Source of the DNA: Synaphobranchus kaupii
Taxonomy: Eukaryota > Chordata > Actinopteri > Anguilliformes > Synaphobranchidae
NCBI GenBank assembly: GCA_029718625.1
Contig: CM056389.1
Location: 17,151,670-17,215,669, forward strand
DNA: 64,000 nucleotides
Reading direction: 5' to 3'
Part shown: piece after piece, positions 5,029 to 58,930 of the stretch
How the letters are laid out: every line of letters starts with the position of its first letter
Position numbering within the stretch: the stretch's first letter is position 1
The notes under the pieces: model-generated
What the model was told of the DNA's origin: nothing
Database searches by the model: none
Seen by the model: only the letters and a program-made list of their open reading frames with translations
Program-made: the position numbers and the translations under genes

Positions 5029-6845
5029 TAGAGCAGTTGAGATGTTTCCAGCTGGCTGTTGCTGTGTTGAAACTACACAGCATCACCTGGCATTCATTCC
5101 CCTGGCAGAAAGAGAGAGAACTGCCCCCTGAAATCTCAGCCCTCACGCTGCAGGCATTATGCCTGCACGGATCAGAAATGCTGGGCCGAGTGTAACTGCA
5201 GCAGACCACTGAGAAATGGGCTCCCGTTCAAATGAGTCACCATTCGATTCCTTAGCGCTTGGAGCTTTGTACGGCCATGGCTGAAATAGCTAGCGAATAA
5301 AGAGCCTTTTTTCAGCACAGAATGGTATATCATGTAGACCTACCATCTAGGCCTATACCATCTATTCATCAAATTCATCAATAGTCTATGCATCAATAGT
5401 TCGTACGCAGACCTACTGTCTATGTATCAATAGTTATTGTTCTTGCACAATATTTGATTCTACATAAGTGTTGTAGCACTCGAGTCCGGGACTTAAACTG
5501 GAGTTAGACTGAATTGTACGCGTGTCTAGAATTGGATTTAATTGTATACATGAATACATTGGAAAAACAAGTGGTTTTATAATTATTACGTTGCAATGAT
5601 CACCGTCAATATCCTCCCTAATCCCTTTTAACGCGCATTAGCATCAATGACTTGCGACATTTATTTAGTTCTTTGGTCAACAAGTTGCCAGCGTCCACCA
5701 TGAAGACAAAATGTCGGCACTACTATCTTCATGTGAAAAAACATGGAATAATTTCACATTTTGTGAGGCACGCCGCATGCACCTTGAGAGGGAAATCAGT
5801 TCGTATTGAACTAATGCGATTTTAGCCAGATAAATTAGGAAAACCAGCTAACTTTACAGTAACAACCCATAGCATTGGTAATCCAGTCAGTCTTGGTTTG
5901 CTCACACTGCTTACCAGTTTGAATAATCATCTCGCTAACAAGCTTTTCAACTCTAGACTAGGCATGAGACATGGCATCCGGAAAGTTTACGTAAATCAAT
6001 GCAAATATTGTGAGGTAATGTAATATACTGACTATTTCTTTAAAATTACTATTTTACTAGCATTTCACCCACAATAACAGTCAGACCCTGTATTGAAAAC
6101 AAACAGCCTTTACTGAGTTGTTTGGATTTATTGAATTCTGAAACATTGATCCGCATTTAACAACAAACAAGTTAACAAGTTGACAATGGCTCTTCTATAT
6201 ACGGTCTATATACGGTCATTTCTTATGGAAAATTACTCAATCCAAAATGAAAAGGGAAAATGAAAATGGAAAAAGAGGATTATTCAGTTAAAAAAAAAAA
6301 GTTAAAGTTGAAAGGATATTTTCAATTTTCATTTGAGTTTTTCCATTTTTGTTTTTAACTTTCTTTTTTAATTTTTAAGTTGTTTGTAAATGAAGGGGTT
6401 TGGCACTACTGTCAATCAAAACAAACAGGGTGGGTCTCATACAGGCACTTTTTCGGACATCATAGCGCATGAGACAGGTAATGGGTAACTTGACACAGGA
6501 CTCCAAAATACTCAAGGCATTCGTAGGTTTTAACAGATCTTTGGTTGCTATACAGTTCTGCGGTTTTAATGGATGAGATGATGATGAATCTGAGCATTTC
6601 TCAAAGCACATGTTATGCTATTAAGCTATGTCATAAGTATGCTACGTAGATCGGGTTAGTCTAACTACAAAGGTCAAACAAAAGAAAGGAGTATACACTC
6701 AAGAAATGGGAAATGGCAGTTAAGAACAAGGGAAGGTCAAAGACATTATCTAGTTAAGAACACCTCTGATTAAGAACCTATTGCTAGCTAACTAGTGGGG
6801 ATAATCCCACTGAGCTATCTCCTGGAACACCAAAAACTAGGAAGC
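5029..6845. other. AT-rich sequence, no gene recognised
   Basis: Contains an A-run at about 6290 and a loosely palindromic A-rich/T-rich tract at 6240-6375. No reading frame here resembles a known protein. Confidence 0.5.
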
Positions 6846-7765
6846 AAGTTTTAATTGGCCTCTACCCATCCCACTCACAGTTTCTGGCCAGCAGAAGCTA
6901 TAAGCTAGTTTTCACTGGCCTCCTACCCATCCAACTCACAGTTCCTAGGCAGCAGAAGCTAGAAAGCTAGTTTTAACTGGCCTCTATCCATCCCACTCAC
7001 AGTTCCTAGCCCGCAGAAGCTATAAGCTAGTTATAACTGGCCTATACCCATCTCACTCACAGGTCTTGGCCAGCAGAAGCTATAAGCTAGTTTTAACTGG
7101 CCTCTACCCACCCCACTCACAGTTCCTAGCCAGCAAAAGCTAGTTTTAACTGGTCTCTACCCACCCCACTCACAGTTCCTGGCCAGCAGAAGCTAGTTTT
7201 AACTGGCCTCTACCCACCCCACTCACAGTTCCTGGCCAGCAGAAGCTAGTTTTAACTGGCCTCTACCCATCTCACTCACAGTTCCTGGCCAGGAGAAGCT
7301 AGTTTTAACTGGCCTCTACCCACCCCACTCACAGTTCCTGGCCAGCAGAAGCTAGTTTTAACTGGCCTCCTACCCACCCCACTCACAGTTCCTGGCCAGC
7401 AGAAGCTATAAGCTAGTTATAACTGGCCTCTACCCACCCCACTCACAGTTCCTGGCCAGCAGAAGCTAGTTTTAACTGGCCTCTACCCATCTCACTCACA
7501 GTTCCTGGCCAGGAGAAGCTAGTTTAATTGGCCTCTACCCACCCCACTCACAGTTCCTGGCCAGCAGAAGCTAGTTTTAACTGGCCTCTACCCACCCCAC
7601 TCACAGTTCCTGGCCAGCAGAAGCTATAAGCTAGTTATAACTGGCCTATACCCATCCCACTCACAGTTCCTGGCCAGCAGAAGCTAGTTTTAACTGGCCT
7701 CTACCCACCCCACTCACAGTTCCTGGCCAGCAGAAGCTAGTTTTAACTGGCCTCTATCCCACTGG
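6846..7765. repeat. Minisatellite, 53-bp and 60/61-bp units, about 16 copies
   Basis: The phrase CTCACAGTTCCTGGCCAGCA recurs about 16 times. Spacing from start to end is 61, 61, 60, 60, 53, 53, 53, 53, 54, 60, 53, 52, 53, 60, 53. Long units differ from short ones by an extra ATAAGCT-type segment after AGAAGCT. The variant GCCAGGAGAAGCT occurs in two units about 220 bp apart, which suggests that blocks of several units were duplicated together. A seventeenth partial unit closes the array. Confidence 0.95.
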
Positions 7766-9453: not shown

Positions 9454-9789
9454 CTCCCAGTTGAGAGTGCATCGAGGGGGACCATTGCGGAAACGGCTAT
9501 ATTGTAATACTCCCAGTTGAGAGTGCATCGAGGAGGACCATTGCGGAAACGGCTATATTGTAATACTCCCAGTTGAGAGTGCATCGAGGGGGACCATTGC
9601 GGAAACGGCTATATTGTAATACTCCCAGTTGAGAGTGCATCGAGGGGGACCATTGCGGAAACGGCTATATTGTAATACTCCCAGTTGAGAGTGCATCGAG
9701 GAGGACCATTGCGGAAACGGCTATATTGTAATACTCCCAGTTGAGAGTGCATCGAGGAGGACCATTGCGGAAACGGCTATATTATTTTC
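9454..9789. repeat. Minisatellite, six 56-bp units
   Basis: CTCCCAGTTGAGAGTGCATC starts at 9454, 9510, 9566, 9622, 9678 and 9734, an exact 56-bp period. Units are almost identical; the only obvious variant is GAGGGGG versus GAGGAGG, in order G, A, G, G, A, A. Such uniformity suggests recent expansion. Confidence 0.97.
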
Positions 9790-11696: not shown

Positions 11697-13382
11697 TTAC
11701 ATTACATTACATTCATTTAGCAGACACTTTTATCCAAAGCGACGTACAATATGTGCATACAGAGACATCATCAAGATCACTACAGAACAGACAAGACAAA
11801 GCACATCCTTCCCATAATGTAGCAGCTATCCCTAGTAATGAACGTTGACTGTAGTTCACAGTAAGCTGTGGGTAAATCAGCAATACTACACTTCTATTCT
11901 AAATACTATTATAAACTATAATGAACAGACAGGAAAACACAGGGAACTAGTAAACACAGGGAACTGATATTCCTAGGTTAGAATATCAGTCAAGGTGGAG
12001 TCTGAAGAGGTGTGTCTTCAGGCCTCAACGGAATGCAGGCAGGGTTGGAGTAGAACGTAGGGGAATGGGAAGTTCATTCCACCACTGAGGAGCTAAGGTG
12101 GAAAAACTCCGCAGTTGGGACGAGCAAGAGCCTTTGACACAGAGGGGGGGAAGTGCCAGTCACCCTGCTGTAGAAGAGCGAAGTGGTCGAGCAGGAACAT
12201 AGTTCTGGATTAAGTCCTGCAGGTAGGCGGGGCCTGTCCTATTGGCTGCAGTGTAGGCCCGGGTCAGAACTTTGAACCTGATCCTGGCTGCAACTGGCAG
12301 CCAGTGGAGTGACCTCAGCAGGGGGGTTACATGGGAAAATTTCGGGAGGTTGAACACAAACCGGGATTAGCTGCATTCTGGATTAGTTGAAGAGGCAGAA
12401 TGGTGCAGGCCGGTAGGCTTGCGAGCAGGGAGTTGCAGTAGTCCAGGCGTGAGGTGACCATGGTCTGGACAAGAAGCTGGGTGGAGTAGGTGGTCAGGTA
12501 CGGTCGAATCCTCCTGATGTTGTACAGGAGGAACCTGCAGGACTGAGCCGTGGCCCTGATGTACTCTTTGAAGTCCAGCCGGTCGTCCAGGACCACCCCC
12601 AGGTTCCTTGCAGAGTGGGAGGCTGCCACCACGGTCCTGTCAATGGTGATGGAGAGGTCATGTAGTGGGGAGGTCTTGTATGGCATGAAGAGGAGCTCTG
12701 TCTTGTCAAGGTTGAGCTTCAGGTGATGGGTAGCCATCCACTCAGAGATGTCAGTCAGACAAGCAGATATCCTCTCCTTAACCTGTGGGGTAGAGGGAGG
12801 GAAAGAGAGGAAGAGTTGAGTATCATCAGCATAGCTATGGTATGAGAAGCCATGTGAATTAATTACTGAGCCAAGAGACTTAGTATACATAGAACAGCAG
12901 AGGACCCAGTACAGATCCCTGCGGGACTCCTGTAGACAGGGGATGGGGAGCAGAGACGGAACCCTTCCAGGAGACTTGGTCTATCAGTGAGATACGATAC
13001 AAACCAAGAGAGGGCAGTTCCAGAAATGCCCATCTCAGCGAGTGTGGAGATGAAGAGTTTGTGGTTGACCGTGTCGAATGCCGCAGACAGGTCAAGGAGA
13101 ATCAGAACAGAGGCTCTAGCAGTGGCGAGTGCCTCCGTCACAGCCAGGAGAGCAGTTTCAGTGGAATGGCCGATTCTGAGGCCGGACTGATGCGGGTCAA
13201 GCAGGTTGTTCTGGTGGAGAAAAACAGACAGTTGGTTAAGGACAGCACGTTCAATTGTTTTGGACAGGAAGGGCAAGAGAGATACAGGACAGTAGTTCCT
13301 GACATCAGTGGGATCCAAGCTAGGTTTTTTAAGGAGTGGGGTTACACGGGCAATTTTAAAGGCAGCAGGAACATGGCCACAG
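11697..13382 (-). mobile_element. L2-clade LINE, 5'-truncated
   Basis: The minus strand ends in a GTCGCTTTGGATAAAAGTGT stem-loop followed by CTGCTAAATG and ATGTAATG repeats, the 3' signal known from UnaL2-type elements. The reverse-transcriptase remnant lies at 13318-12160. The 5' end is truncated at about 13382, as is usual for LINEs. It sits inside a MITE. The reading frame is shifted at least twice, so the copy is dead. Confidence 0.88.
12160..13318 (-). pseudogene. L2 reverse transcriptase, broken
   Basis: Three overlapping minus-strand frames together cover the fingers, palm and C-terminal part of an L2/CR1-type reverse transcriptase. Frame one (13318-12863) has YCPVSLLPFLSKTIERAV, then [11 protein letters not shown], the palm motif with the first catalytic Asp. 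Frame two (12890-12327) has SYADDTQLF, the catalytic YADD box, then TSRLDYCNSLLASLP. Frame three (12357-12160) has LRSLHWLPVAARIRFKVLT. The normal protein also has an upstream endonuclease, absent here. Frameshifts near 12880 and 12340 and a damaged VPQGSVLGP region in frame one rule out function. Confidence 0.88.
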
Positions 13383-20630: not shown

Positions 20631-21022
20631 TTACATTACATCATTTACATTACATTTATTTAGCAGACGCTTTTATCCAAAGCGACGTACAGTAAGTGCG
20701 TACAGAGACATCATCATCATTACAGAACAGACAAGGCAAAGCACATCCTTTGCATAATGTAGCAGCTATCCCTAGCAATGAACGTTTGACTGTAGTTCAC
20801 AGTAAGCTGTGGGCAAATCAGCAACACCACACTTTCATTCCAAATACTATTATAAACTATACTATTATAAACCATTCCAAATACTATTATAAACTATGCT
20901 ATTATAAACCATTCCAAATACTATTATAAACTATAATAAACAAACAGGAAAACACAGGGAACAGGGAACTGATATTCCTAGGTGAGGATATCAGTCAAGG
21001 TGGAGTCTGAAGAGGTGTGTCT
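20631..21022 (-). mobile_element. L2-clade LINE, 3' part (split by LTR element)
   Basis: Has the same 3' stem-loop as the copy at 11697 (GTCGCTTTGGATAAAAGCGT) and parallels it base for base with small changes. It carries an extra 37-bp tandem at 20837-20935 (ATTCCAAATACTATTATAAA word). The element breaks at 21022 and resumes at 26612, exactly flanking the LTR retrotransposon. Confidence 0.88.
21019..21022. repeat. Target-site duplication GTCT, left
   Basis: GTCT here and at 26612-26615. The uninterrupted L2 copy (12011-12022) has the site once, as TGTGTCTTCAGG. Confidence 0.85.
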
Positions 21023-21765
21023 TGTCGGGTAAGTGAGGACTAGGTAAAATGTGTATTTTCTGAATCCAGCGGTTCCAACAGTCAATACCCTTGTTAAAAC
21101 GTTCGGCACTCTGAATACTGAACACAAGCGATATTGCGTGCTAGAACCCCTCACTTAACCTACATTCAAAATAAGTTTTACGTGATTTAATTGAATTATT
21201 ATTATTAAAAATTACAATCATCAATTAAATCGCCAAATTCGTTAATAGGTAAGTCGAACTGTAACCTGGTGGATCAACTAACAAGCCAAAACAAAGTCTA
21301 AATCAGGTCTTGAGATTAAGTAATTTTATTAAATGAAAACATTCAATTAGAATAATGACTGGGAATCATACATTCACAAAGGATTGTAGGCTGACTACTT
21401 ATAATTCACAAAAGTGAAGACATTAAACCAGACATTAATTGGGAAATATACCAGAAAAGAGAGAGATAAGCCAAAAATTGTCAAATTATTTACCCTCCAG
21501 CGGAACAGGAACAAAAGGAAACGCACGAGGAACCAAAAAGAATGACTTCTTCACACAAACTCCACAATTGACTAACTTCTTTTTCTGCGGTACACTCATA
21601 AAATACCTCCACAGGAAGACCATCCCTGTCCTGATTGGGTTAAGGTGTGGGGGAGGGGGGGGAGAGGGGTCATTTATGACAGACTGGCTTATCTTTGATG
21701 GGGGGTTGAGAATGAGAGAGAGAGACAGAGATAGAGAGAAGGGGGGAAATATTAGATATCCTACA
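21023..21765 (-). repeat. 3' LTR of the LTR element
   Basis: 743 bp, identical to the other LTR except for one G fewer in the G-run near 21655. On the minus strand it opens TGTAGGATATCTAATATTTC and closes CTCACTTACCCGACA. A TATAAG box (complement 21398-21403) lies about 70 nt before an AATAAA signal (complement 21325-21330), a spacing compatible with a U3-R boundary between them. Confidence 0.93.
21325..21330 (-). promoter_or_regulatory. Probable LTR polyadenylation signal AATAAA
   Basis: TTTATT on the plus strand; repeated at the equivalent place in the other LTR. Function is inferred from position after a TATAAG box. Confidence 0.45.
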
Positions 21766-21775
21766 TCCCTCTCTT
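21766..21775 (-). other. Polypurine tract
   Basis: On the minus strand AAGAGAGGGA directly abuts the TG of the 3' LTR, the place where plus-strand DNA synthesis is primed. A second copy of this tract lies at 22803-22812. Confidence 0.85.
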
Positions 21776-21816
21776 GTAAGAATAGGTGCATGCACCTGCT
21801 AAAAACCTATTCTTAC
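21776..21816 (-). other. RNA hairpin A beside the polypurine tract
   Basis: Arms GTAAGAATAGG (21776-21786) and CCTATTCTTAC (21806-21816) pair perfectly over 11 bp with a 19-nt loop containing TGCATGCA. The counterpart at 22813-22853 pairs equally well although three pairs differ. Confidence 0.8.
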
Positions 21817-22734
21817 ATCACCAAATAGGAATCACATTACACATTTGGACATTGAAGATGCAGTTACCTGCTAACAACAAAAACAACTGTCCAAATGGTT
21901 CACCAACCATTTTTAAAACATTTAGTCCATGCCCAGTTTAATAGTCCCTTTGTGATCTAGAGTCATATCTCTATTAGACACTCTTTTGTGTCGCTGCTGT
22001 TATGACACCCTGGTTCAGTCTCTTCCTTCTCCAGTGTCCGGGTATCTAGACTGGCAAGGGACCAGAAGTTCCCTGGACTTGGGTAACATGCAGTGCTTTT
22101 TCCATTAGTGTTGCAATTGCGTGAGTGAAATGCAACCTACTCCACAGTGTCTCTACCAGTTGTGCACGGCGTGCGGGGGCTCTGTCTCCTGTGACAGGAA
22201 GCTGGACGATCCACAGGTGGCAAAGTGCAGTCAGGGCCTCTCTTCTGACGGGCGGGGAAGCTCCTCTTTCCCTGTCGGAATCCATTTTGGCTCCTTTAGC
22301 CTGGATCCAATTGGGTGGACTGCTGACGGCAGTTGCTTAGGCTAGCTTCCCGCGGCAGGGTGTGGGACCGGTTGCACTTGTTTGCACTTGTGTCTGTGGG
22401 TGTCCTTTAGGGAATGGCAGGAGAAGACTGTGGGAGTTGAGGGCTTAGGCATTAACACTCATAGCGAAGACCGGAACAATTAATGATAGCACTGCATGTT
22501 ATGACCACTGTCAGTCCATGCCGGGGAACCTTACGGACAGGGTTTACCTTCCACGGGATTGCCAGTCTAAATAATCACATGAATAGGGCTGACTTGTCCA
22601 GAAGTGTCTATGAACAGTATTTGGCGGGGCACCTACACTCTATAAAAGGGACTTAAACACAACATGGGCATGGTATTAGGTTAAAAGGTGGTGGTAGGGA
22701 TGGATGGGGGCGGGGGGGGGGCAGAGAGAGGCCG

Positions 22735-22802
22735 AGAGAGAGAGACAGAGAGAGGGAGAGAGAGAGAGAAAGAGCAAAAGACATTAGGCAACATCCCGTC
22801 AT
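22735..22802 (-). repeat. U3-start-like fragment between the two copies
   Basis: Immediately past polypurine tract B, the minus strand reads TGACGGGATGTTGCCTAATG and then a CT-rich run. The true LTR opens TGTAGGATATCTAATAT before a similar CT-rich run. The match suggests that the duplicated unit included the first ~60 bp of an LTR. Confidence 0.55.
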
Positions 22803-23755
22803 TCCCTCTCTTGGAACGATAGGTGCATGCAGCTGCTAAGAGCCTATCGTTCCATCATCATAACAACCACACATTTGGACATTATATCATTGTACAATGA
22901 TAGCTGCATGAAAACAAGTGTCCTAATGGTTCACTAACCATCTTTAAAACAATTAGTCCATGTCCAGTTTACTAGTCCCATTGTGATGATCCGGTGTGGT
23001 GCAGACATTTATTATTTTTTTTTCACTGCTGTCATGGCACCTTGGTTCAGTCAATTCCTTCTCCAGTGTCAGGGTATCTGGACTGGCAAGGGAAGAAGCT
23101 CCCTGGACTTCCTTGGATAACATGCAGTGCTTATTCCCCTTAATGTTGTAACTGTGTGAGTGAAAGGCGGCCTAATTTGACAGTGTCTCTACCAATTCTG
23201 CACTGCGTGCGGGGGGCTCTGTCTCCTGTGACAGGCAGCTGGACGATCCACAGGCGGAAAAGTGCGGTCAAGACCTCTCTACTGACGGGCGGGGAAGCAC
23301 CTCTTTCCCTGTCGGAATCCGTTTTGGCTCCTTGAGCTCGGGTCCAGTTGGGTGGACTGCTGACGGCAGTCGCTTAGGCTAGCTTCCCATGGCAGGGTAT
23401 GGGTCCGGTTGCACTTGTGCCTCTGGGGGTCCTTCGGGGAGTGGCAGGAGAAGACTGTGGGACTTGAGGGTTTAGGCCTTATCACTCACAGCAACATGTG
23501 AAGAGGGGAACACTGCATGTTATAAGCACTTAGTCCATTCAGGGGAACCTTACGGACAGGATTTACTATCCACAAGATTGCCAGTCCAAATAATTACCTG
23601 AATAGGGCAGACTTGTCCACAAGTGCCCAGGAACAGCATTGGAGGGGGCACCTACACTTTAAAAAAGGGACTTAAAAACATGGGCATTGTCTTATGTTAA
23701 AAGGTGGTGGTAGGGATGTGGGGGGGTGGTAAGGGGGGGGGGGGGCAGGGGCAGG
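22803..23755 (-). repeat. Internal tandem duplication, copy B
   Basis: Partner of copy A. In element orientation it starts after the ORF and ends with hairpin B (22813-22853) and polypurine tract B (22803-22812). G-runs at 22707-22722 and 23722-23745 occupy equivalent places. Confidence 0.85.
22813..22853 (-). other. RNA hairpin B
   Basis: Arms GGAACGATAGG (22813-22823) and CCTATCGTTCC (22843-22853), 11 perfect pairs, 19-nt loop again starting TGCATGCA. Compared with hairpin A, arm positions 2, 5 and 6 changed together with their partners. Confidence 0.8.
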
Positions 23756-23829
23756 CAGAGTGCCAGTTTTACCTCCTAGAACCCCAGTGTGGTTACTGGC
23801 AGTCCTTTGGCTGCAGAGGGCCACAGCGT

Positions 23830-25704
23830 TCAGCAAACCGGGATGACAGGAGGCATCCTGTCATCTTGCTTCTTCCGCACGTGGATGCCCCTTAACCACG
23901 CCCGTCTCATCTCTGTCCAGGGGTCTATGCCAGTTTTGGCTTTGGTTCCCTCTCTGGGCAGCTGGGCTGATCGTTGCTCGTAGGCATGCAGTCCATCACT
24001 GCTCTCCGAACACTTCTGATGTCGGAAAAGGGCTCTTGCACTCTCCCTGGATGACGTGTGTGTGCGAAGTTTGCAGGTGTGGCTCGGGGGTGGAGAGACG
24101 AGGGTGGGGGAAACTGTTGTGCTAAATTGGCTGCTTTCATCTTGCCTTGGATTGCAAGACAACACTCTGGCGGAGACTTTGAGGGCCAGAGGAGTCGTAA
24201 AACGGCCGGGGGTTGGCTTCCTGCTCCGTTTCTCCCGGGGTCTCTTTACAGCTCTGATAGGGGAGCGAGACTTTCGCAGAAGTCCCCCTATCTCCTCCAT
24301 CACAGGAACTGTGGAAGTGGGAGAGTCCACAGAGCACACCCCTTCTGTCTGTGCAGCAGACAGAGGTTCCCCGGATTCAGCAGGAGGGGAAGAAAAGTCC
24401 ACAAGGGGTGGGGTGGGGTCCTCGGCCTGGGTGGACTTTTCTGTGGGGGCTGACTCCACCTGTTGGGGTGCGTAGACCTCTCCACCTGGCAGGGCTGATG
24501 GGCCTGTAGAAGCCGGTTCCGCGTCCTGCGGTTCAATGGTCTCCTCACCAGGCTGGGCTGCTGTGTCTGCAGTAGCAGGTTCTGCCCCCAGGGGTTCGAC
24601 GGTCTCCTCACCAGGCTGGGCTGCTGTGTCTGCAGTAGCAGGTTCTGCCTCCAGGGGTTTGACGGTCTCCTCACCAGGCTGGGCTGCTGTGTCTGCAGTA
24701 GCAGGTTCTGCCTCCAGGGGTTTGACGGTCTCCTCACCAGGCTGGGCTGCTGTGTCTGCAGTAGCAGGTTCTGCCTCCAGGGGTTTGACGGTCTCCTCAC
24801 CAGGCTGGGCTGCTGTGTCTGCAGTAGCAGGTTCTGCCTCCAGGGGTTTGACGGTCTCCTCACCAGGCTGGGCTGCTGTGTCTGCAGTAGCAGGTTCTGC
24901 CTCCAGGGGTTCGACGGTCTCCTCACCAGGCTGGGCTGCTGTGTCTGCAGTAGCAGGTTCTGCCTCCAGGGGTTCGACGGTCTCCTCACCTGGCTCAGCT
25001 GAGAGGACTGCAGCAGCGGATTCCACGTCCTGTGGGGTCACATCCTCTGTGGTGGCTGGTGTGATACAAAACACAGAGCTGTTTCCCCCAAATTCCTCCA
25101 GGGAAGGGGGGCTCACCAGGGGGGCGGCTACATTGTCTGTGGAGGTGACAAAATCCACAGAATTGTCCAAGCCTGAAGGGGGTGGGGATGAGTCAATGGA
25201 GAGTGCTGTATTGTCCTCGGTGGGGGGTGGTGCCTGGGTTATGGCTGGAATGGCGCCATGCACTGCTCCTTCCAGCGCATGCTGGACTGCCACAGAAGAA
25301 ACTGGTTTGGCAGTAACTCCTGACTTAGAGTGGTGCTTTTCCCAAGCCAGTTTCCACATCTGGTTTACCTCCTCCCATGCCTGCTTTGACCGCCAGAGGT
25401 AGAGAAAATGTTGTCTTTTCTCTAGGTACGACCTTATCCCTTGGACAATCTTGCGCTTGGTTTCATCACTATCTGGAGAAATCAGATAGTCCAAATACTC
25501 AGTCCGCAGGTTGTAAAGGGCCTCCTCCTTCAGCTGGTCCATTGCCTTGAGCTGTTCTGCAAATTTTGGGCACTGGGCTATCAAATATTGCCGTTCTGAT
25601 AACATGAGATACCACTGCTGATCCAGCCTTGACTGGCCAGGGAATGCTGGTAGGTTAGCAGTGGAGGGTAAATGAGGCATCTCTCTCTTTGTCTGGTATG
25701 CCAT
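23830..25704 (-). CDS. Gag-position ORF of the LTR element, 624 aa, repeat-bearing, novel
   Basis: The only long protein of the element, starting 141 nt after the primer-binding site, where gag is expected. Residues 1-130 are charged and rich in Leu, Trp and Tyr (for example QQWYLMLSERQYLIAQCPKF), probably helical. Residues 131-237 are Pro/Ser/Thr-rich. Residues 238-384 are seven 21-residue repeats of the type PGEETVEPLEAEPATADTAA + Q. Residues 385-405 are an eighth, diverged, and a weaker ninth follows. Residues 477-496 are strongly basic (RKSRSPIRAVKRPREKRSRK), a possible nucleic-acid-binding or nuclear-targeting patch. No CCHC knuckle, protease or polymerase motif is seen. No stop interrupts it. 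The role as a gag-like or accessory protein is inferred from position only; I recognise no homologue. Confidence 0.75.
   Translation of the reverse strand: MAYQTKREMPHLPSTANLPAFPGQSRLDQQWYLMLSERQYLIAQCPKFAEQLKAMDQLKEEALYNLRTEYLDYLISPDSDETKRKIVQGIRSYLEKRQHFLYLWRSKQAWEEVNQMWKLAWEKHHSKSGVTAKPVSSVAVQHALEGAVHGAIPAITQAPPPTEDNTALSIDSSPPPSGLDNSVDFVTSTDNVAAPLVSPPSLEEFGGNSSVFCITPATTEDVTPQDVESAAAVLSAEPGEETVEPLEAEPATADTAAQPGEETVEPLEAEPATADTAAQPGEETVKPLEAEPATADTAAQPGEETVKPLEAEPATADTAAQPGEETVKPLEAEPATADTAAQPGEETVKPLEAEPATADTAAQPGEETVEPLGAEPATADTAAQPGEETIEPQDAEPASTGPSALPGGEVYAPQQVESAPTEKSTQAEDPTPPLVDFSSPPAESGEPLSAAQTEGVCSVDSPTSTVPVMEEIGGLLRKSRSPIRAVKRPREKRSRKPTPGRFTTPLALKVSARVLSCNPRQDESSQFSTTVSPTLVSPPPSHTCKLRTHTSSRESARALFRHQKCSESSDGLHAYEQRSAQLPREGTKAKTGIDPWTEMRRAWLRGIHVRKKQDDRMPPVIPVC
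24530..25000 (-). repeat. 63-bp coding minisatellite inside the ORF, eight units
   Basis: CTCCTCACC starts at 24541, 24604, 24667, 24730, 24793, 24856, 24919 and 24982, an exact 63-bp period that keeps the frame (21 codons). Inner units are almost identical; the edge units diverge. The main variable codon toggles Glu/Lys. Confidence 0.96.
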
Positions 25705-25845
25705 AATAATATTTTAAAAAATTTAAAAAATAAATAAATAAAATCAATAAATCTAAGACCAGTCGATTAGAAAAAGATTTGAACTTGTCTCAGAGTTTAC
25801 CGCAGTTTACTCAATAGCAAAATTTAGTATGCTATAGGACAACCT

Positions 25846-25863
25846 ATCTCGGTGGGACCTCCA
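25846..25863 (-). other. Primer-binding site for tRNA-Gln
   Basis: The plus strand reads ATCTCGGTGGGACCTCCA, which is the 3' end of a vertebrate tRNA-Gln (TTG) with CCA as I know it. The minus strand is therefore complementary over 18 nt. It lies 4 nt from the 5' LTR and fixes the element's orientation. Confidence 0.88.
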
Positions 25864-25867
25864 ATTA

Positions 25868-26611
25868 TGTCGGGTAAGTGAGGACTAGGTAAAATGTGTA
25901 TTTTCTGAATCCAGCGGTTCCAACAGTCAATACCCTTGTTAAAACGTTCGGCACTCTGAATACTGAACACAAGCGATATTGCGTGCTAGAACCCCTCACT
26001 TAACCTACATTCAAAATAAGTTTTACGTGATTTAATTGAATTATTATTATTAAAAATTACAATCATCAATTAAATCGCCAAATTCGTTAATAGGTAAGTC
26101 GAACTGTAACCTGGTGGATCAACTAACAAGCCAAAACAAAGTCTAAATCAGGTCTTGAGATTAAGTAATTTTATTAAATGAAAACATTCAATTAGAATAA
26201 TGACTGGGAATCATACATTCACAAAGGATTGTAGGCTGACTACTTATAATTCACAAAAGTGAAGACATTAAACCAGACATTAATTGGGAAATATACCAGA
26301 AAAGAGAGAGATAAGCCAAAAATTGTCAAATTATTTACCCTCCAGCGGAACAGGAACAAAAGGAAACGCACGAGGAACCAAAAAGAATGACTTCTTCACA
26401 CAAACTCCACAATTGACTAACTTCTTTTTCTGCGGTACACTCATAAAATACCTCCACAGGAAGACCATCCCTGTCCTGATTGGGTTAAGGTGTGGGGGAG
26501 GGGGGGGGAGAGGGGTCATTTATGACAGACTGGCTTATCTTTGATGGGGGGTTGAGAATGAGAGAGAGAGACAGAGATAGAGAGAAGGGGGGAAATATTA
26601 GATATCCTACA
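25868..26611 (-). repeat. 5' LTR of the LTR element
   Basis: 744 bp, TG...CA, matching the 3' LTR apart from one G in a homopolymer. The reading frame from its start resembles that in the other LTR simply because the DNA is the same; it is not a gene. Confidence 0.93.
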
Positions 26612-27230
26612 GTCTTCAGGCCTCGACGGAATGCAGGCAGGGTTGGAGTAGAACGTAGGGGAATGGGAAGTTCATTCCACCACTGAGGTGCTAATGTGGA
26701 AAAACTCCGCAGTCGGGACAAGCGAGAGCCTTTGACACGGAGGGGGGGAAGTGCCAGTCGCCCTGCTGTAGAAGAGCGAAGTGGTCGAGCAGGAACATAG
26801 TTCTGGATTAAGTCCTGCAGGTAGGCGGGGCCTGTCCTATTTGCTGCAGTGTAGGCCAGGGTCAGAACTTTGAACCTGATCCTGGCTGCAACTGGCAGCC
26901 AGTGGAGAGACCTCAGCAGGGGGGTTACGTGGGAAAATTTCGGGAGGTTGAACACAAGCCGGGCAGCTGCATTCTGGATGAGTTGAAGAGGCAGAATGGC
27001 GCAGGCCGGTAGGCTTGCGAGCAGGGAGTTGCAGTAGTCCAGGCGTGAGGTGACCATGGTCTGGACAAGAAGCTGGGTGGAGTAGGTGGTCAGGTACGGT
27101 CGAATCCTCCTGATGTTGTACAGGAGGAACCTGCAGGACCGTGCCGTCGCCCTGATGTGCTCTTTGAAGTCCAGCCGGTCGTCCAGGACCACCCCCAGGT
27201 TCCTTGCAGAGCGGGAGGCAGCCACCGCGT
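26612..27230 (-). mobile_element. L2-clade LINE, 5' part, with open RT C-terminal frame
   Basis: Resumes the L2 copy broken at 21022. On the minus strand it encodes an unbroken stretch of about 205 codons: ARNLGVVLDDRLDFKEHI, then TSRLDYCNSLLASLPAC, then LRSLHWLPVAARIRFKVLTL and PQWWNELPIPLRS. These are the RT thumb/C-terminal region of L2-type ORF2. The YADD box is not included because the copy is 5'-truncated at about 27230. The frame is intact where the 11697 copy is shifted, so this copy is the younger or better preserved. Confidence 0.85.
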
Positions 27231-27915
27231 TTGATATCGGGACTGATCCAGGGCTGCAGGCAATCCTCAGGGGGCCGCCAGGGAAGGGAAGGAGAAGAGG
27301 ACGCAGGGGAGGAGGAGTAGAGGTAGCGACTGAAGAGGCTGAGTGGGTCCGGTGCTCCGTTCCGACTGGACAGAGACTGTGCGCGTGTGGAGAAGGGTCA
27401 CGGAGGCGGAGTTTGCGCGTGTGTCGACAGGGCTCGGAGTGGAACAGATGCGATCCGAGAGACGCGTCGCTCTGCGGAAGTGGAGTTGCTCTCATTGTCT
27501 TTTAGACCCACGTATCTACCGTGAAACAGAAACAGGACTTTGGAAGGGAAGGATCTGCCGAAACGGCTTTGTCCCTGCAGCTGTTGGACTGCTTAATGAC
27601 ACTGGACGTCTGAAAACAGCGGGGGCGGATGAGGAACTGTTGTTGCTTTTGATGCTCAATTTTTCAACATAATTAATAATTGGTTAATTTAATTTGATAT
27701 TAATAGTAAAAATTATAATAGTAATTTTATTCATAATCATATTTCACTCCAGTCATGCCTTCACTTATGTGAGACATCTGATTCAATTGAATGTATTTAT
27801 TGAACATGTCTGTGTTTTGTGGGTCTGCCCCACTGTATTTGTCTTTTTTGTTGTTGGCAACTACAACTGAAGTTCCCTCACAGGAAAATAAAGGTTATTC
27901 TATTCTATTTTATTC
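27231..27915 (+). mobile_element. LINE remnant with (TTCTA)n tail
   Basis: Near the start a frame reads GPPGKGRRRGRRGGG, like the basic segment before many fish LINE endonucleases. Near 27500-27590 a frame reads RICRNGFVPAAVGLLND, like the extreme C-terminus of several fish LINE proteins. The end, CAGGAAAATAAAGGTTATTC and then TCTAT repeats, fits a LINE 3' end. The middle is missing, so this is a deletion relic. Clade not assigned. Confidence 0.5.
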
Positions 27916-54558: not shown

Positions 54559-56173
<1,615 letters not shown>

Positions 56174-56696: not shown

Positions 56697-57921
56697 CAGT
56701 CAAGCCGGAAAGTCTGCACACCCCTTTCACCTTCTCCACGTTTTATTACGTTACAGACATATTCTACAATAGATTGACAAAGTGAAAACAGGTTTTTAGA
56801 CATTTGTGCTAATTTATTAAAAGTTTGGAACCACCAAGAATCTTCCTAGACCTGGCCGCCCGGCCAAACTGAGCAATCGGGGAAGACGGGCCTTGGCCAG
56901 GGAGGTGAGCAGGAACCCGAGGGTCACTCTGACAGAACTCCAGCGTATCCTTGTGGAGATGGGAGAACCTCTCAGAAGATCAACCATCCAGGCAGCACTC
57001 CACCAATCAGGCCTTTATGGTAGAGTGGCCAGATGGAAGCCCCTCCTTAGTAAAAGGCACATCACAGCCCGCTTGGAGTTTGCCAAAAGGCACCTAGAGG
57101 ACTGTCAAACCATGAGAATCAAGATTCTCTGGTCTGATGAAACCAAAATGGAACCTTTTGGCCTGAATACCAAGCGTCACGTCTGGAGGAAACCAGGCAC
57201 CGCTCATCACCTGGCTAATACCATCCCTACAGTGAAGCATGGCGGTGGCAGCATCATGATGTGGGGATGTTTTTCAGCAGCGGGAACAGGGAGATTAGTC
57301 CTGATAGAGGGAAAGATGAATGCAGCTACGTACACCGAGATCCTTGAAGAAAACCTGCTCCAGAGTGCTCTGGACCTCAGACTGGGGCGAAGGTTTACCT
57401 TCCAACATGACAACGACCCGAAGCACACAGCCAAGAGAACAAAGGAGTGGCTTCGAAGAAAGTCTGTGCATGTCCTTGAGTGGCCAAGCCAGAGCCCAGA
57501 CCTGAATCCAATTGAACATCTGTGGAAAGAGCTGAAAATGGCTGTGTACCGATGCTCCCCATCCAACCTGACGGAGCTTGCAAGGATATGCCAAGAGGAA
57601 TGGGCAAAAATGTCCAGAAACAAGTGTGCCAAGCTCGTAGCTTCTTTCCCAAGACGCCTTGAAGCTGTAATCGCTGCCAAAGGTGCAGCAACCAAGTATT
57701 AGGCTAAGGGTGTGTACAGATATGTAACCCCTAAATTACCTATTTTTGTCAGTAAAATAAAATTGCATATTTTCTAAAAACCTGTTTTCACTTTGTCATT
57801 ATTGGCTATTGTGTGTAGATGTTTGAGGCAAAAAATTAACTCAATCTATTGTAGTATAAGTCTGTAATGTAATAGAACGTGGAGAAGGTGAAAGGGGTGT
57901 GCAGACTTTCCGGCTTGACTG
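56697..57921 (+). mobile_element. Tc1 transposon with 5' coding deletion
   Basis: 1225 bp. Ends CAGTCAAGCCGGAAAGTCTG at left and its complement at right, with TA at 56695-56696 and 57922-57923. This is a different Tc1 family from the 54559 element. It interrupts the L2 ORF. Confidence 0.92.
56821..57702 (+). pseudogene. Tc1 transposase lacking the first DNA-binding helix-turn-helix, otherwise open
   Basis: The frame opens right after a TAA at 56818 with [20 protein letters not shown], the normal linker after the first helix-turn-helix, so about 45-50 N-terminal residues are deleted. From there it runs unbroken to TAG at 57700. Counting from the codon at 56893, the catalytic triad is D82 (LWSDETK), D173 (QHDNDPKHT), E208 ([10 protein letters not shown]), with exact 90 and 34 spacing. 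It ends AAKGAATKY. There is no ATG at a sensible place, and DNA binding would be impaired. Confidence 0.88.
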
Positions 57922-58930
57922 TATATGTGAGGATTCGTGCAGCAGGGTTTTGGATAATTTGAAGTTTATTTATAAGCTTGAAGGGGAGTCCTGAGAGTAT
58001 ACCATTGCAATAGTCTAGTCGGGAAGTGACGAATGCGTGGATCAAAGTTTCAGCACTGGAGTGAGAAAGTGAGGGACGGAGTCGGGAGATGTTGCAGAGG
58101 TGAAAGAATGCAGTGCGTGACATATTCTTGATGTGGGGTGCGAAAAAGAGGGTTTTATCCAGAATAACCCCAAGACTTTTGACTTGGGGTGACAGGGGGA
58201 TAAGGTGGTCGTCAATAAAAGTTTTAAAGGCGGGTGCTTTTGACAGGGTGGATTTTGTACCTATGAGCATAACTTCAGTTTTGTTGGCATCGAGTTCGAG
58301 GAAATTGGTAGCCATCCAGGCCTTGATGTCAAGGAGGCAGCTGGTGAGGGAGGAGGGGGGCAGAGGGGCATTGGGTTTGGATGATATGTAGAGTTGTGTA
58401 TCGTCGGTGTAACAGTGGAAATAAATGCTATGATGCCACGTGATTCGGCCAAGGGGAAGGAGACTGAACTGGTTCTAAGAGGTTGTTACTGTCAAGGTGG
58501 GATTGGAGTTGGGCTGCTACTACACGTTCGAGAATTTTGGAGAGAAATGGGAGGTTAGAGATGGGGCGGAAGTTGTTAAGTGTGTTTGGATCTGCACCAG
58601 GCTTTTTGAGTATGGGTGAGATAGCAGCTGTATTGAGTGAAAGGGGAACAGAACTAGAGACCAGTGATGCATTGATTATCTGTGTTAACAGTGGAGAGAG
58701 GACAGGGAGTGCAACTTTAACTAGGGAAGTAGGAAGAAGGTCGAGTTTGCAGGTGGAGGACTTGGATGAAGTGGTGATTTTAACTATATAATCCTCTGTC
58801 ACTGGTGTGAAGGCAGATAAACTATTAATGTACTGGTGGTCAGTGGTGATAGTCATCCAGGGGGGCCCAGCATTGGTGGAATGGGATTGTAACAGATCTT
58901 GATGAATATTATCAATTTTACTGCAACTTA
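57922..58930 (-). pseudogene. L2 reverse transcriptase with core deleted
   Basis: From the 58930 side, the frame has STCKLDLLPTSLVKVALPVL, NNFRPISNLPFLSKILERVV and SNNLLEPVQS. It then jumps at about 58460 to PLGRI..., in a shifted frame, with CYTDDTQLY (the catalytic box as YTDD). It continues DANKTEVMLIGTKS and TSRLDYCNGILSGLPFKLIN. The stretch between, which normally holds the first palm Asp and the VPQGS motif, is missing. Confidence 0.85.

What the first reader, a model, noticed from the sequence alone, without database searches (positions are those of the whole stretch)
21023..26611. Young non-autonomous LTR retrotransposon with a single unfamiliar gag-position protein
Seen directly: 743/744-bp LTRs with one homopolymer difference, TG...CA ends, GTCT duplication, tRNA-Gln primer site, polypurine tract, and one open 624-codon ORF with no pol. 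Known: gag-only TR-GAG elements exist in plants and need a partner. Inference: a gag-only, recently active family in a fish, with a protein lacking zinc knuckles. This is the best candidate here for an undescribed system.
Basis: partly seen in the sequence, partly recalled or inferred. Interest (0 to 1): 0.88.

Follow-up and report, generated by a model that had tools for sequence, protein, structure and literature searches.

The report
Abundant partner-dependent retrotransposon of an eel
A deep-sea eel genome carries many nearly identical copies of a jumping element that makes one protein of unknown family but none of the enzymes needed to copy itself, so it probably borrows them; similar 'one-protein' elements are already known in zebrafish and plants.

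Summary
The window holds a complete LTR element on the minus strand (21023-26611): 743/744-bp LTRs differing by one gap, GTCT duplication, Gln-type primer site (tRNA recalled), polypurine tract, one 624-codon ORF, no pol. A LINE copy elsewhere in the window shows the empty site. In the host genome (Synaphobranchus kaupii), 40 LTR hits were scored, all at 99-100%, and 150 copies of the N-terminal domain, all at >=99%; 9 of 9 elements read have an interior collinear with the window's and a perfect 4-bp duplication. Unusual here: the protein matches no known Gag, though fold tests are weak; it has a helical head, an acidic 21-residue repeat and a basic tail; the 3' region is duplicated, with two polypurine tracts, each beside a hairpin, the stems differing by three compensatory changes. 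Selection on the ORF is not proven. An Aldrovandia fragment 148/151 identical means horizontal transfer or contamination. No partner was found; three candidate families showed no matching primer site in the 5.5 kb read of each.

The parts
21019..21022 (.). target-site duplication GTCT, left
   Evidence: single copy in the paralogous empty site
21023..21765 (-). 3' LTR (element sense), 743 bp
21766..21775 (-). polypurine tract A next to the 3' LTR
   Evidence: last 12 nt of the interior identical in 9 of 9 copies
21775..21817 (-). hairpin A, 12-bp perfect outer stem, directly upstream of PPT A
   Evidence: identical in 9 of 9 copies
21766..22802 (-). 3' region copy A (about 1.03 kb; includes a C/T-rich stretch that may be a truncated LTR start)
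   Evidence: LTR-start likeness reached by 3 of 500 shuffles, weak
22803..22812 (-). internal polypurine tract B
22812..22854 (-). hairpin B, stem differs from A by three compensatory pair changes
   Evidence: identical in 9 of 9 copies
22803..23740 (-). 3' region copy B, 82% identical to A
23830..25704 (-). single ORF, 624 aa, gag position; predicted helical head (residues ~26-128), acidic repeat, basic tail predicted disordered
24483..24995 (-). in-frame 63-bp (21-aa) tandem repeat, 8.1 units, acidic
25705..25867 (-). leader between 5' LTR and ORF, 163 nt (includes the PBS)
25846..25863 (-). primer binding site TGGAGGTCCCACCGAGAT, 4 nt from the LTR (tRNA-Gln type, recalled)
   Evidence: the other 8 copies read carry T at the eighth base
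25868..26611 (-). 5' LTR (element sense), 744 bp
26612..26615 (.). target-site duplication GTCT, right

Best explanation
It is a young copy of an abundant, non-autonomous LTR retrotransposon family. SHOWN: pol-less units of one structure sit at different sites, each flanked by its own 4-bp duplication, with LTRs nearly or fully identical. INFERRED: the LTR drives one transcript that is packaged, primed by tRNA-Gln, reverse-transcribed and integrated by enzymes of an unidentified autonomous partner. INFERRED (somewhat more likely than not): the 624-aa protein is a Gag-like nucleoprotein whose helical head multimerises and whose basic tail binds the element's RNA, with the acidic repeat as a length-tolerant linker; it may also serve the partner, as proposed for plant semi-autonomous elements. 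INFERRED: the hairpin beside each polypurine tract is a cis-acting RNA signal (packaging, export or plus-strand priming).
For: Anatomy and empty site. Genome search: 40 LTR hits scored of 3157 first-look candidates, all listed at 99-100%, with nine LTR pairs 4.75-5.09 kb apart. Nine of nine pairs have perfect 4-bp duplications of different sequence, 0-3 LTR-LTR substitutions, interiors of 4009-4351 nt, both hairpins and the PPT; every base of the other eight interiors is covered by the window's interior, and none has a CCHC or [YF]XDD motif. N-terminal domain: 150 scored of 844 candidates, all >=99%, no stops, longest open frame 819 aa, so none of the 150 is fused in frame to pol. 96 of these 150 have open frames of >=550 aa (the best-scoring copies only); 6 of 9 full copies have the whole ORF, 587-628 aa. 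The PBS differs by one base between the window and the other 8 copies, as expected if different primer tRNAs template it. Net charges: head +4, middle -11, -41 and -10, tail +19. Codons 1-200 show 10 synonymous to 13 non-synonymous changes, the C-terminal part 9 to 28.
Against: No Gag, capsid or zinc-knuckle match; the head model is of low confidence (pLDDT 57.9) with no fold hit, and residues 408-624 are predicted disordered. Selection on the ORF is not established: the excess of synonymous change in codons 1-200 is weak (P 0.024 at an expected synonymous share of 0.23, 0.12 at 0.30), the C-terminal part looks neutral, and nucleotide diversity in codons 1-200 (0.0097) is close to or above that of the non-coding 3' region (0.0103 in copy B, 0.0044 in copy A). 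3 of 9 full copies have broken frames yet also inserted recently. No partner found: three integrase-bearing families show no Gln-like PBS in the 5.5 kb read of each.
Confidence: 0.55

Rival explanations
1. The ORF is not a Gag but an unrelated accessory protein (captured or newly arisen) in the gag position; capsid and enzymes both come from the partner. This resembles the wheat Sabrina_NA variants that carry unique short proteins in place of GAG-Pro.
For: No Gag or capsid similarity in Pfam, PDB or protein databases; long helices, an acidic low-complexity repeat and a disordered tail do not resemble a MA-CA-NC layout; published parallel in PMC9744471 (passages).
Against: Position, size and a basic tail fit Gag; fast-evolving Gags can escape profile searches; single-sequence models are weak tests.
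Confidence: 0.27
2. Simple internal-deletion derivative: an ordinary retroelement that lost pol, its ORF being a passenger without function, amplified from a few master copies.
For: 3 of 9 full copies have broken frames and 33 of 150 scored N-terminal hits have frames under 300 aa; the C-terminal part evolves as if neutral, and diversity in codons 1-200 is close to or above that of the 3' region.
Against: 96 of 150 scored N-terminal loci keep frames of >=550 aa; the six whole ORFs differ in length, 587-628 aa, without losing the frame; no pol-bearing version was seen; slight excess of synonymous change in codons 1-200.
Confidence: 0.16
3. Assembly artefact or chance ORF.
For: Only the repeat-rich composition, which also opens other frames of the repeat.
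Against: Nine insertion sites with nine different 4-bp duplications; ORF openness 0 of 20,000 simulations.
Confidence: 0.02

Closest known systems
BHIKHARI-1 and BHIKHARI-2 (crestin), zebrafish gag-only endogenous retroviruses (PMC10996621; outline, abstract and passages seen)
   Same: Teleost host; two LTRs; one long ORF (617 aa in Bik-1, 624 here); no pol; recent, near-identical copies; the passages seen mention no zinc knuckle; a partner must supply pol.
   Different: Bik-1 Gag is described with a coiled-coil, a capsid domain and a putative glycine-rich end; here no capsid domain is recognised, the tail is basic with 7 glycines in 154 residues, an acidic 21-aa repeat lies in the middle, and the 3' region is duplicated. 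Sequence homology could not be tested (no Bik sequence held).
Wheat RLG_Quinta/RLG_Cereba and RLG_Sabrina/RLG_WHAM/RLG_Wilma (PMC11302176, PMC9744471; passages seen)
   Same: Abundant LTR families without RT and integrase, thought to be mobilised by a partner that shares LTR ends and PBS; several keep Gag, some Sabrina variants carry unique short proteins instead.
   Different: Plant Gypsy elements, Gag recognisable in Quinta, WHAM and Sabrina_SA; a partner was proposed there, none here.
TR-GAG elements (PMC8704663, passages seen; the defining paper PMC4350172 is not held)
   Same: LTRs plus a single gag ORF; transposition of one TR-GAG was reported in Arabidopsis.
   Different: TR-GAG ORFs are Gag by homology; this ORF is not recognised as Gag.

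Membership tests
Non-autonomous LTR retrotransposon | LTRs with TG...CA ends, target duplication, PBS, PPT | tested here: met
   identity of the primer tRNA recalled
Non-autonomous LTR retrotransposon | no pol, yet dispersed as a family of like structure | tested here: met
Gag-only (TR-GAG / semi-autonomous) element | single ORF homologous to Gag | tested here: inconclusive
   no Pfam, PDB, Foldseek or VIA match that stands out; models of low confidence
Gag-only (TR-GAG / semi-autonomous) element | autonomous partner with like LTR ends and PBS | tested here: inconclusive
   3 integrase-bearing families looked at by one 5.5-kb piece each: no Gln-like PBS, no LTR similarity beyond chance; PBS-pattern search not answered
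BHIKHARI / lokiretrovirus-type gag-only ERV | sequence homology of the Gag | not testable with these tools
   no Bik or crestin sequence held; protein searches returned three S. kaupii proteins, one Aldrovandia protein and one weak repeat hit
BHIKHARI / lokiretrovirus-type gag-only ERV | coiled-coil plus capsid domain | tested here: inconclusive
   long helices in the head but pLDDT 57.9; no fold match
BHIKHARI / lokiretrovirus-type gag-only ERV | glycine-rich C-terminal patch | tested here: not met
   7 glycines in residues 471-624, 32 K+R there

The most novel reading that the evidence does not exclude
An LTR retrotransposon whose capsid gene has been replaced by an orphan three-part protein (helical head, acidic expandable repeat, basic tail), kept open in most of the best-scoring copies, with a covarying hairpin-PPT module in duplicate, and which despite lacking pol has recently crossed between fish orders (eel and halosaur).
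Probability: 0.15. Interest if true: 0.75.

Novelty: new variant of a known kind. Interest (0 to 1): 0.5.

Why it matters
It adds a further teleost case of a pol-less LTR family that keeps one protein, abundant, in a fish lineage far from zebrafish, with a protein that the profile searches used here cannot place. That makes two open questions testable: how far a structural protein can depart from Gag and still be mobilised by a partner, and whether partner-dependent elements can move between species. It also supplies a natural within-element covariation test for a hairpin beside the polypurine tract.

Full report
Observation. The window carries a complete LTR element read on the minus strand. 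The LTRs lie at 21023-21765 and 25868-26611 and differ by one gap and no substitution. GTCT flanks it on both sides. The same window holds a second copy of the LINE that was hit (11896-12633, 94.6% identical over 738 aligned columns), which spans the insertion point with a single GTCT, so the empty site is seen directly. In element order: 5' LTR, 4-nt spacer, PBS TGGAGGTCCCACCGAGAT (25846-25863), ORF of 624 aa starting 163 nt after the LTR, two diverged copies of a ~1.03-kb 3' region, polypurine tract, 3' LTR. That the PBS fits tRNA-Gln is recalled, not computed.

Host and family. The protein search returned S. kaupii proteins on a contig of 145,317,930 bases, and contig C1 of the window's own genome has exactly that length: the host is Synaphobranchus kaupii, Kaup's arrowtooth eel. 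A paper passage credits an S. kaupii assembly (GCA_029718625.1) to Parey et al. 2023 (PMC12492003, passages). The window is C14:17151670-17215669 of a 1.503-Gb genome.

Copies. The LTR search scored 40 of 3157 first-look candidates; all 40 are listed at 99-100% identity. Among them are nine LTR pairs 4751-5094 bp apart, the window's included. I read all nine (window plus L030-L037). All nine have a perfect 4-bp duplication, each of different sequence; LTR-LTR substitutions are 0, 0, 1, 3, 0, 1, 2, 0, 0; interiors are 4009-4351 nt; both hairpins and the PPT are the same in all nine. Every base of the eight other interiors is covered by the window's interior, and none of the nine has a CCHC or [YF]XDD motif, so these copies hide no pol. 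The nine come from the hits most like the window's LTR and are biased to young copies. Six of nine keep the whole ORF (587-628 aa); three are broken, with longest ATG-started ORFs of 156, 235 and 235 aa. The 135-residue head gave 844 candidates, of which 150 were scored: all >=99% identical, none with a stop; open frames 175-819 aa, 96 of 150 at >=550, 21 at 300-549, 33 below 300. No scored copy is long enough for an in-frame gag-pol fusion, and the nearest pair of a scored head and a scored integrase hit is 11.8 kb apart. Only the best candidates are scored, so an older or pol-bearing relative could be hidden.

The protein. Pfam gives no family for the whole protein and nothing over cut-off for its ends; PDB sequences give nothing credible. 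Three protein-database searches, each on a capped candidate set, found P0001 (99% over the head; it lacks the first eight residues and is three 21-aa units and 15 further residues shorter in the repeat), P0002 (a relative read partly in another frame), P0003 (repeat only), a weak repeat match P0004 (E 0.13), and P0005 from Aldrovandia. The head is predicted as long helices at low confidence (pLDDT 57.9) without a fold match that stands out; residues 408-624 are predicted disordered but for one short helix (pLDDT 48.1). Net charge runs +4 (head), -11, -41, -10 (middle), +19 (tail).

Selection. Among the nine copies, broken ones included, codons 1-200 have 10 synonymous and 13 non-synonymous changes and codons 408-624 have 9 and 28. 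The excess of synonymous change in the first is P 0.024 against a uniform expectation of 0.23 and 0.12 if the expected share is 0.30; the second is neutral. Against selection, nucleotide diversity in codons 1-200 (0.0097) is close to that of 3' copy B (0.0103) and above that of copy A (0.0044); the leader is at 0.0373 and the C-terminal part at 0.0135. Selection is hinted at by one measure and not by the other.

The 3' module. The two 3' copies are 82% identical (760 of 924 aligned positions, 53 gap columns). Each ends in a hairpin followed by AAGAGAGGGA. The two 12-bp stems are both perfect and differ at three pairs, all compensatory; the chance that six random substitutions in 24 stem bases leave perfect pairing is 6e-5 under independence. 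RNA folding z-scores are -3.3 and -2.7. Only two distinct sequences underlie this, since all nine elements carry the same pair; correction of one arm from the other at the DNA level could also keep the pairing. The duplication is in all nine copies read, so it predates the recent burst.

Mechanism. Shown: pol-less units of one structure sit at nine sites with their own 4-bp duplications and nearly identical LTRs. From established LTR-element biology: reverse transcriptase, RNase H and integrase must come from elsewhere. The PBS differs between the window (C) and the other eight copies (T) at one base; a primer tRNA copied into the new element would explain it, inferred. The Gag-like role of the protein is inference from position, size and charge. 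Candidate partners: 150 integrase hits were scored of 7788; several families have repeated equal scores and frames of 1182-1415 aa. One copy each of three families was examined in a 5.5-kb upstream piece: no Gln-like PBS within four mismatches and no similarity to this LTR beyond chance. This does not exclude them fully, since the piece may miss the PBS, and the other integrase families were not examined.

Known relatives. BHIKHARI-1 of zebrafish is a recently active ERV family with a single 617-aa Gag and no pol; BHIKHARI-2 includes crestin; depletion of either Gag is reported to disturb embryonic development (PMC10996621, abstract, outline and passages). Wheat Quinta, Sabrina and WHAM are published semi-autonomous or non-autonomous families, some Sabrina variants with unique proteins in place of GAG-Pro (PMC11302176, PMC9744471, passages). 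So the kind is known. The protein and the 3' module make this a variant rather than a plain further member.

Aldrovandia. P0005 (Aldrovandia affinis, order Notacanthiformes; longest contig 4668 bp) matches residues 55-205 at 148 of 151 positions, then leaves the frame. Two copies inside the eel (window and P0001) differ at 2 of the same 151 positions. Such similarity between fish orders is hard to square with old vertical inheritance of a mobile element (inference). It is either recent horizontal transfer or mixing of samples; the short contig, and my recollection that both genomes come from one project, favour contamination. It is left open.

Noticed in passing
P0005 (Aldrovandia affinis) against window 23830-25704: Fragment of the same ORF, 148 of 151 residues identical, in a fish of another order, on a short contig: horizontal transfer or contamination.
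   Followed up: partly
P0003 (S. kaupii, 35-Mb contig): A gene model with Ig domains contains the element's 21-aa acidic repeats (81 of 97 residues identical): exonised element or a gene-model error.
   Followed up: no
P0002 C-terminus against the 3' region of the element (frame listed): The annotated relative continues from near the ORF end into sequence of the 3' region in another frame, suggesting a predicted splice inside the element transcript.
   Followed up: no
window 12327-12980 (-), 26616-27501 (-), 57836-58474 (-): LINE remnants: RVT_1 below cut-off in the first and third, none in the second, which is linked to the first by DNA similarity; the element sits near the end of that LINE's ORF.
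   Followed up: partly
window 54880-55542 (+) and 56821-57702 (+): Tc1/mariner-type transposase frames (HTH_SB and HTH_Tnp_Tc3_2; HTH_Tnp_Tc3_2 and DDE_3).
   Followed up: no
window 6841-7762 and 9454-9783: Minisatellites of 53 bp (16.5 copies, 85% matches) and 56 bp (5.9 copies, 98% matches).
   Followed up: no
G000, e.g. C7:56697752, C13:15954677, C15:18401755: Several families with integrase frames of 1182-1415 aa in repeated copies of equal score.
   Followed up: partly
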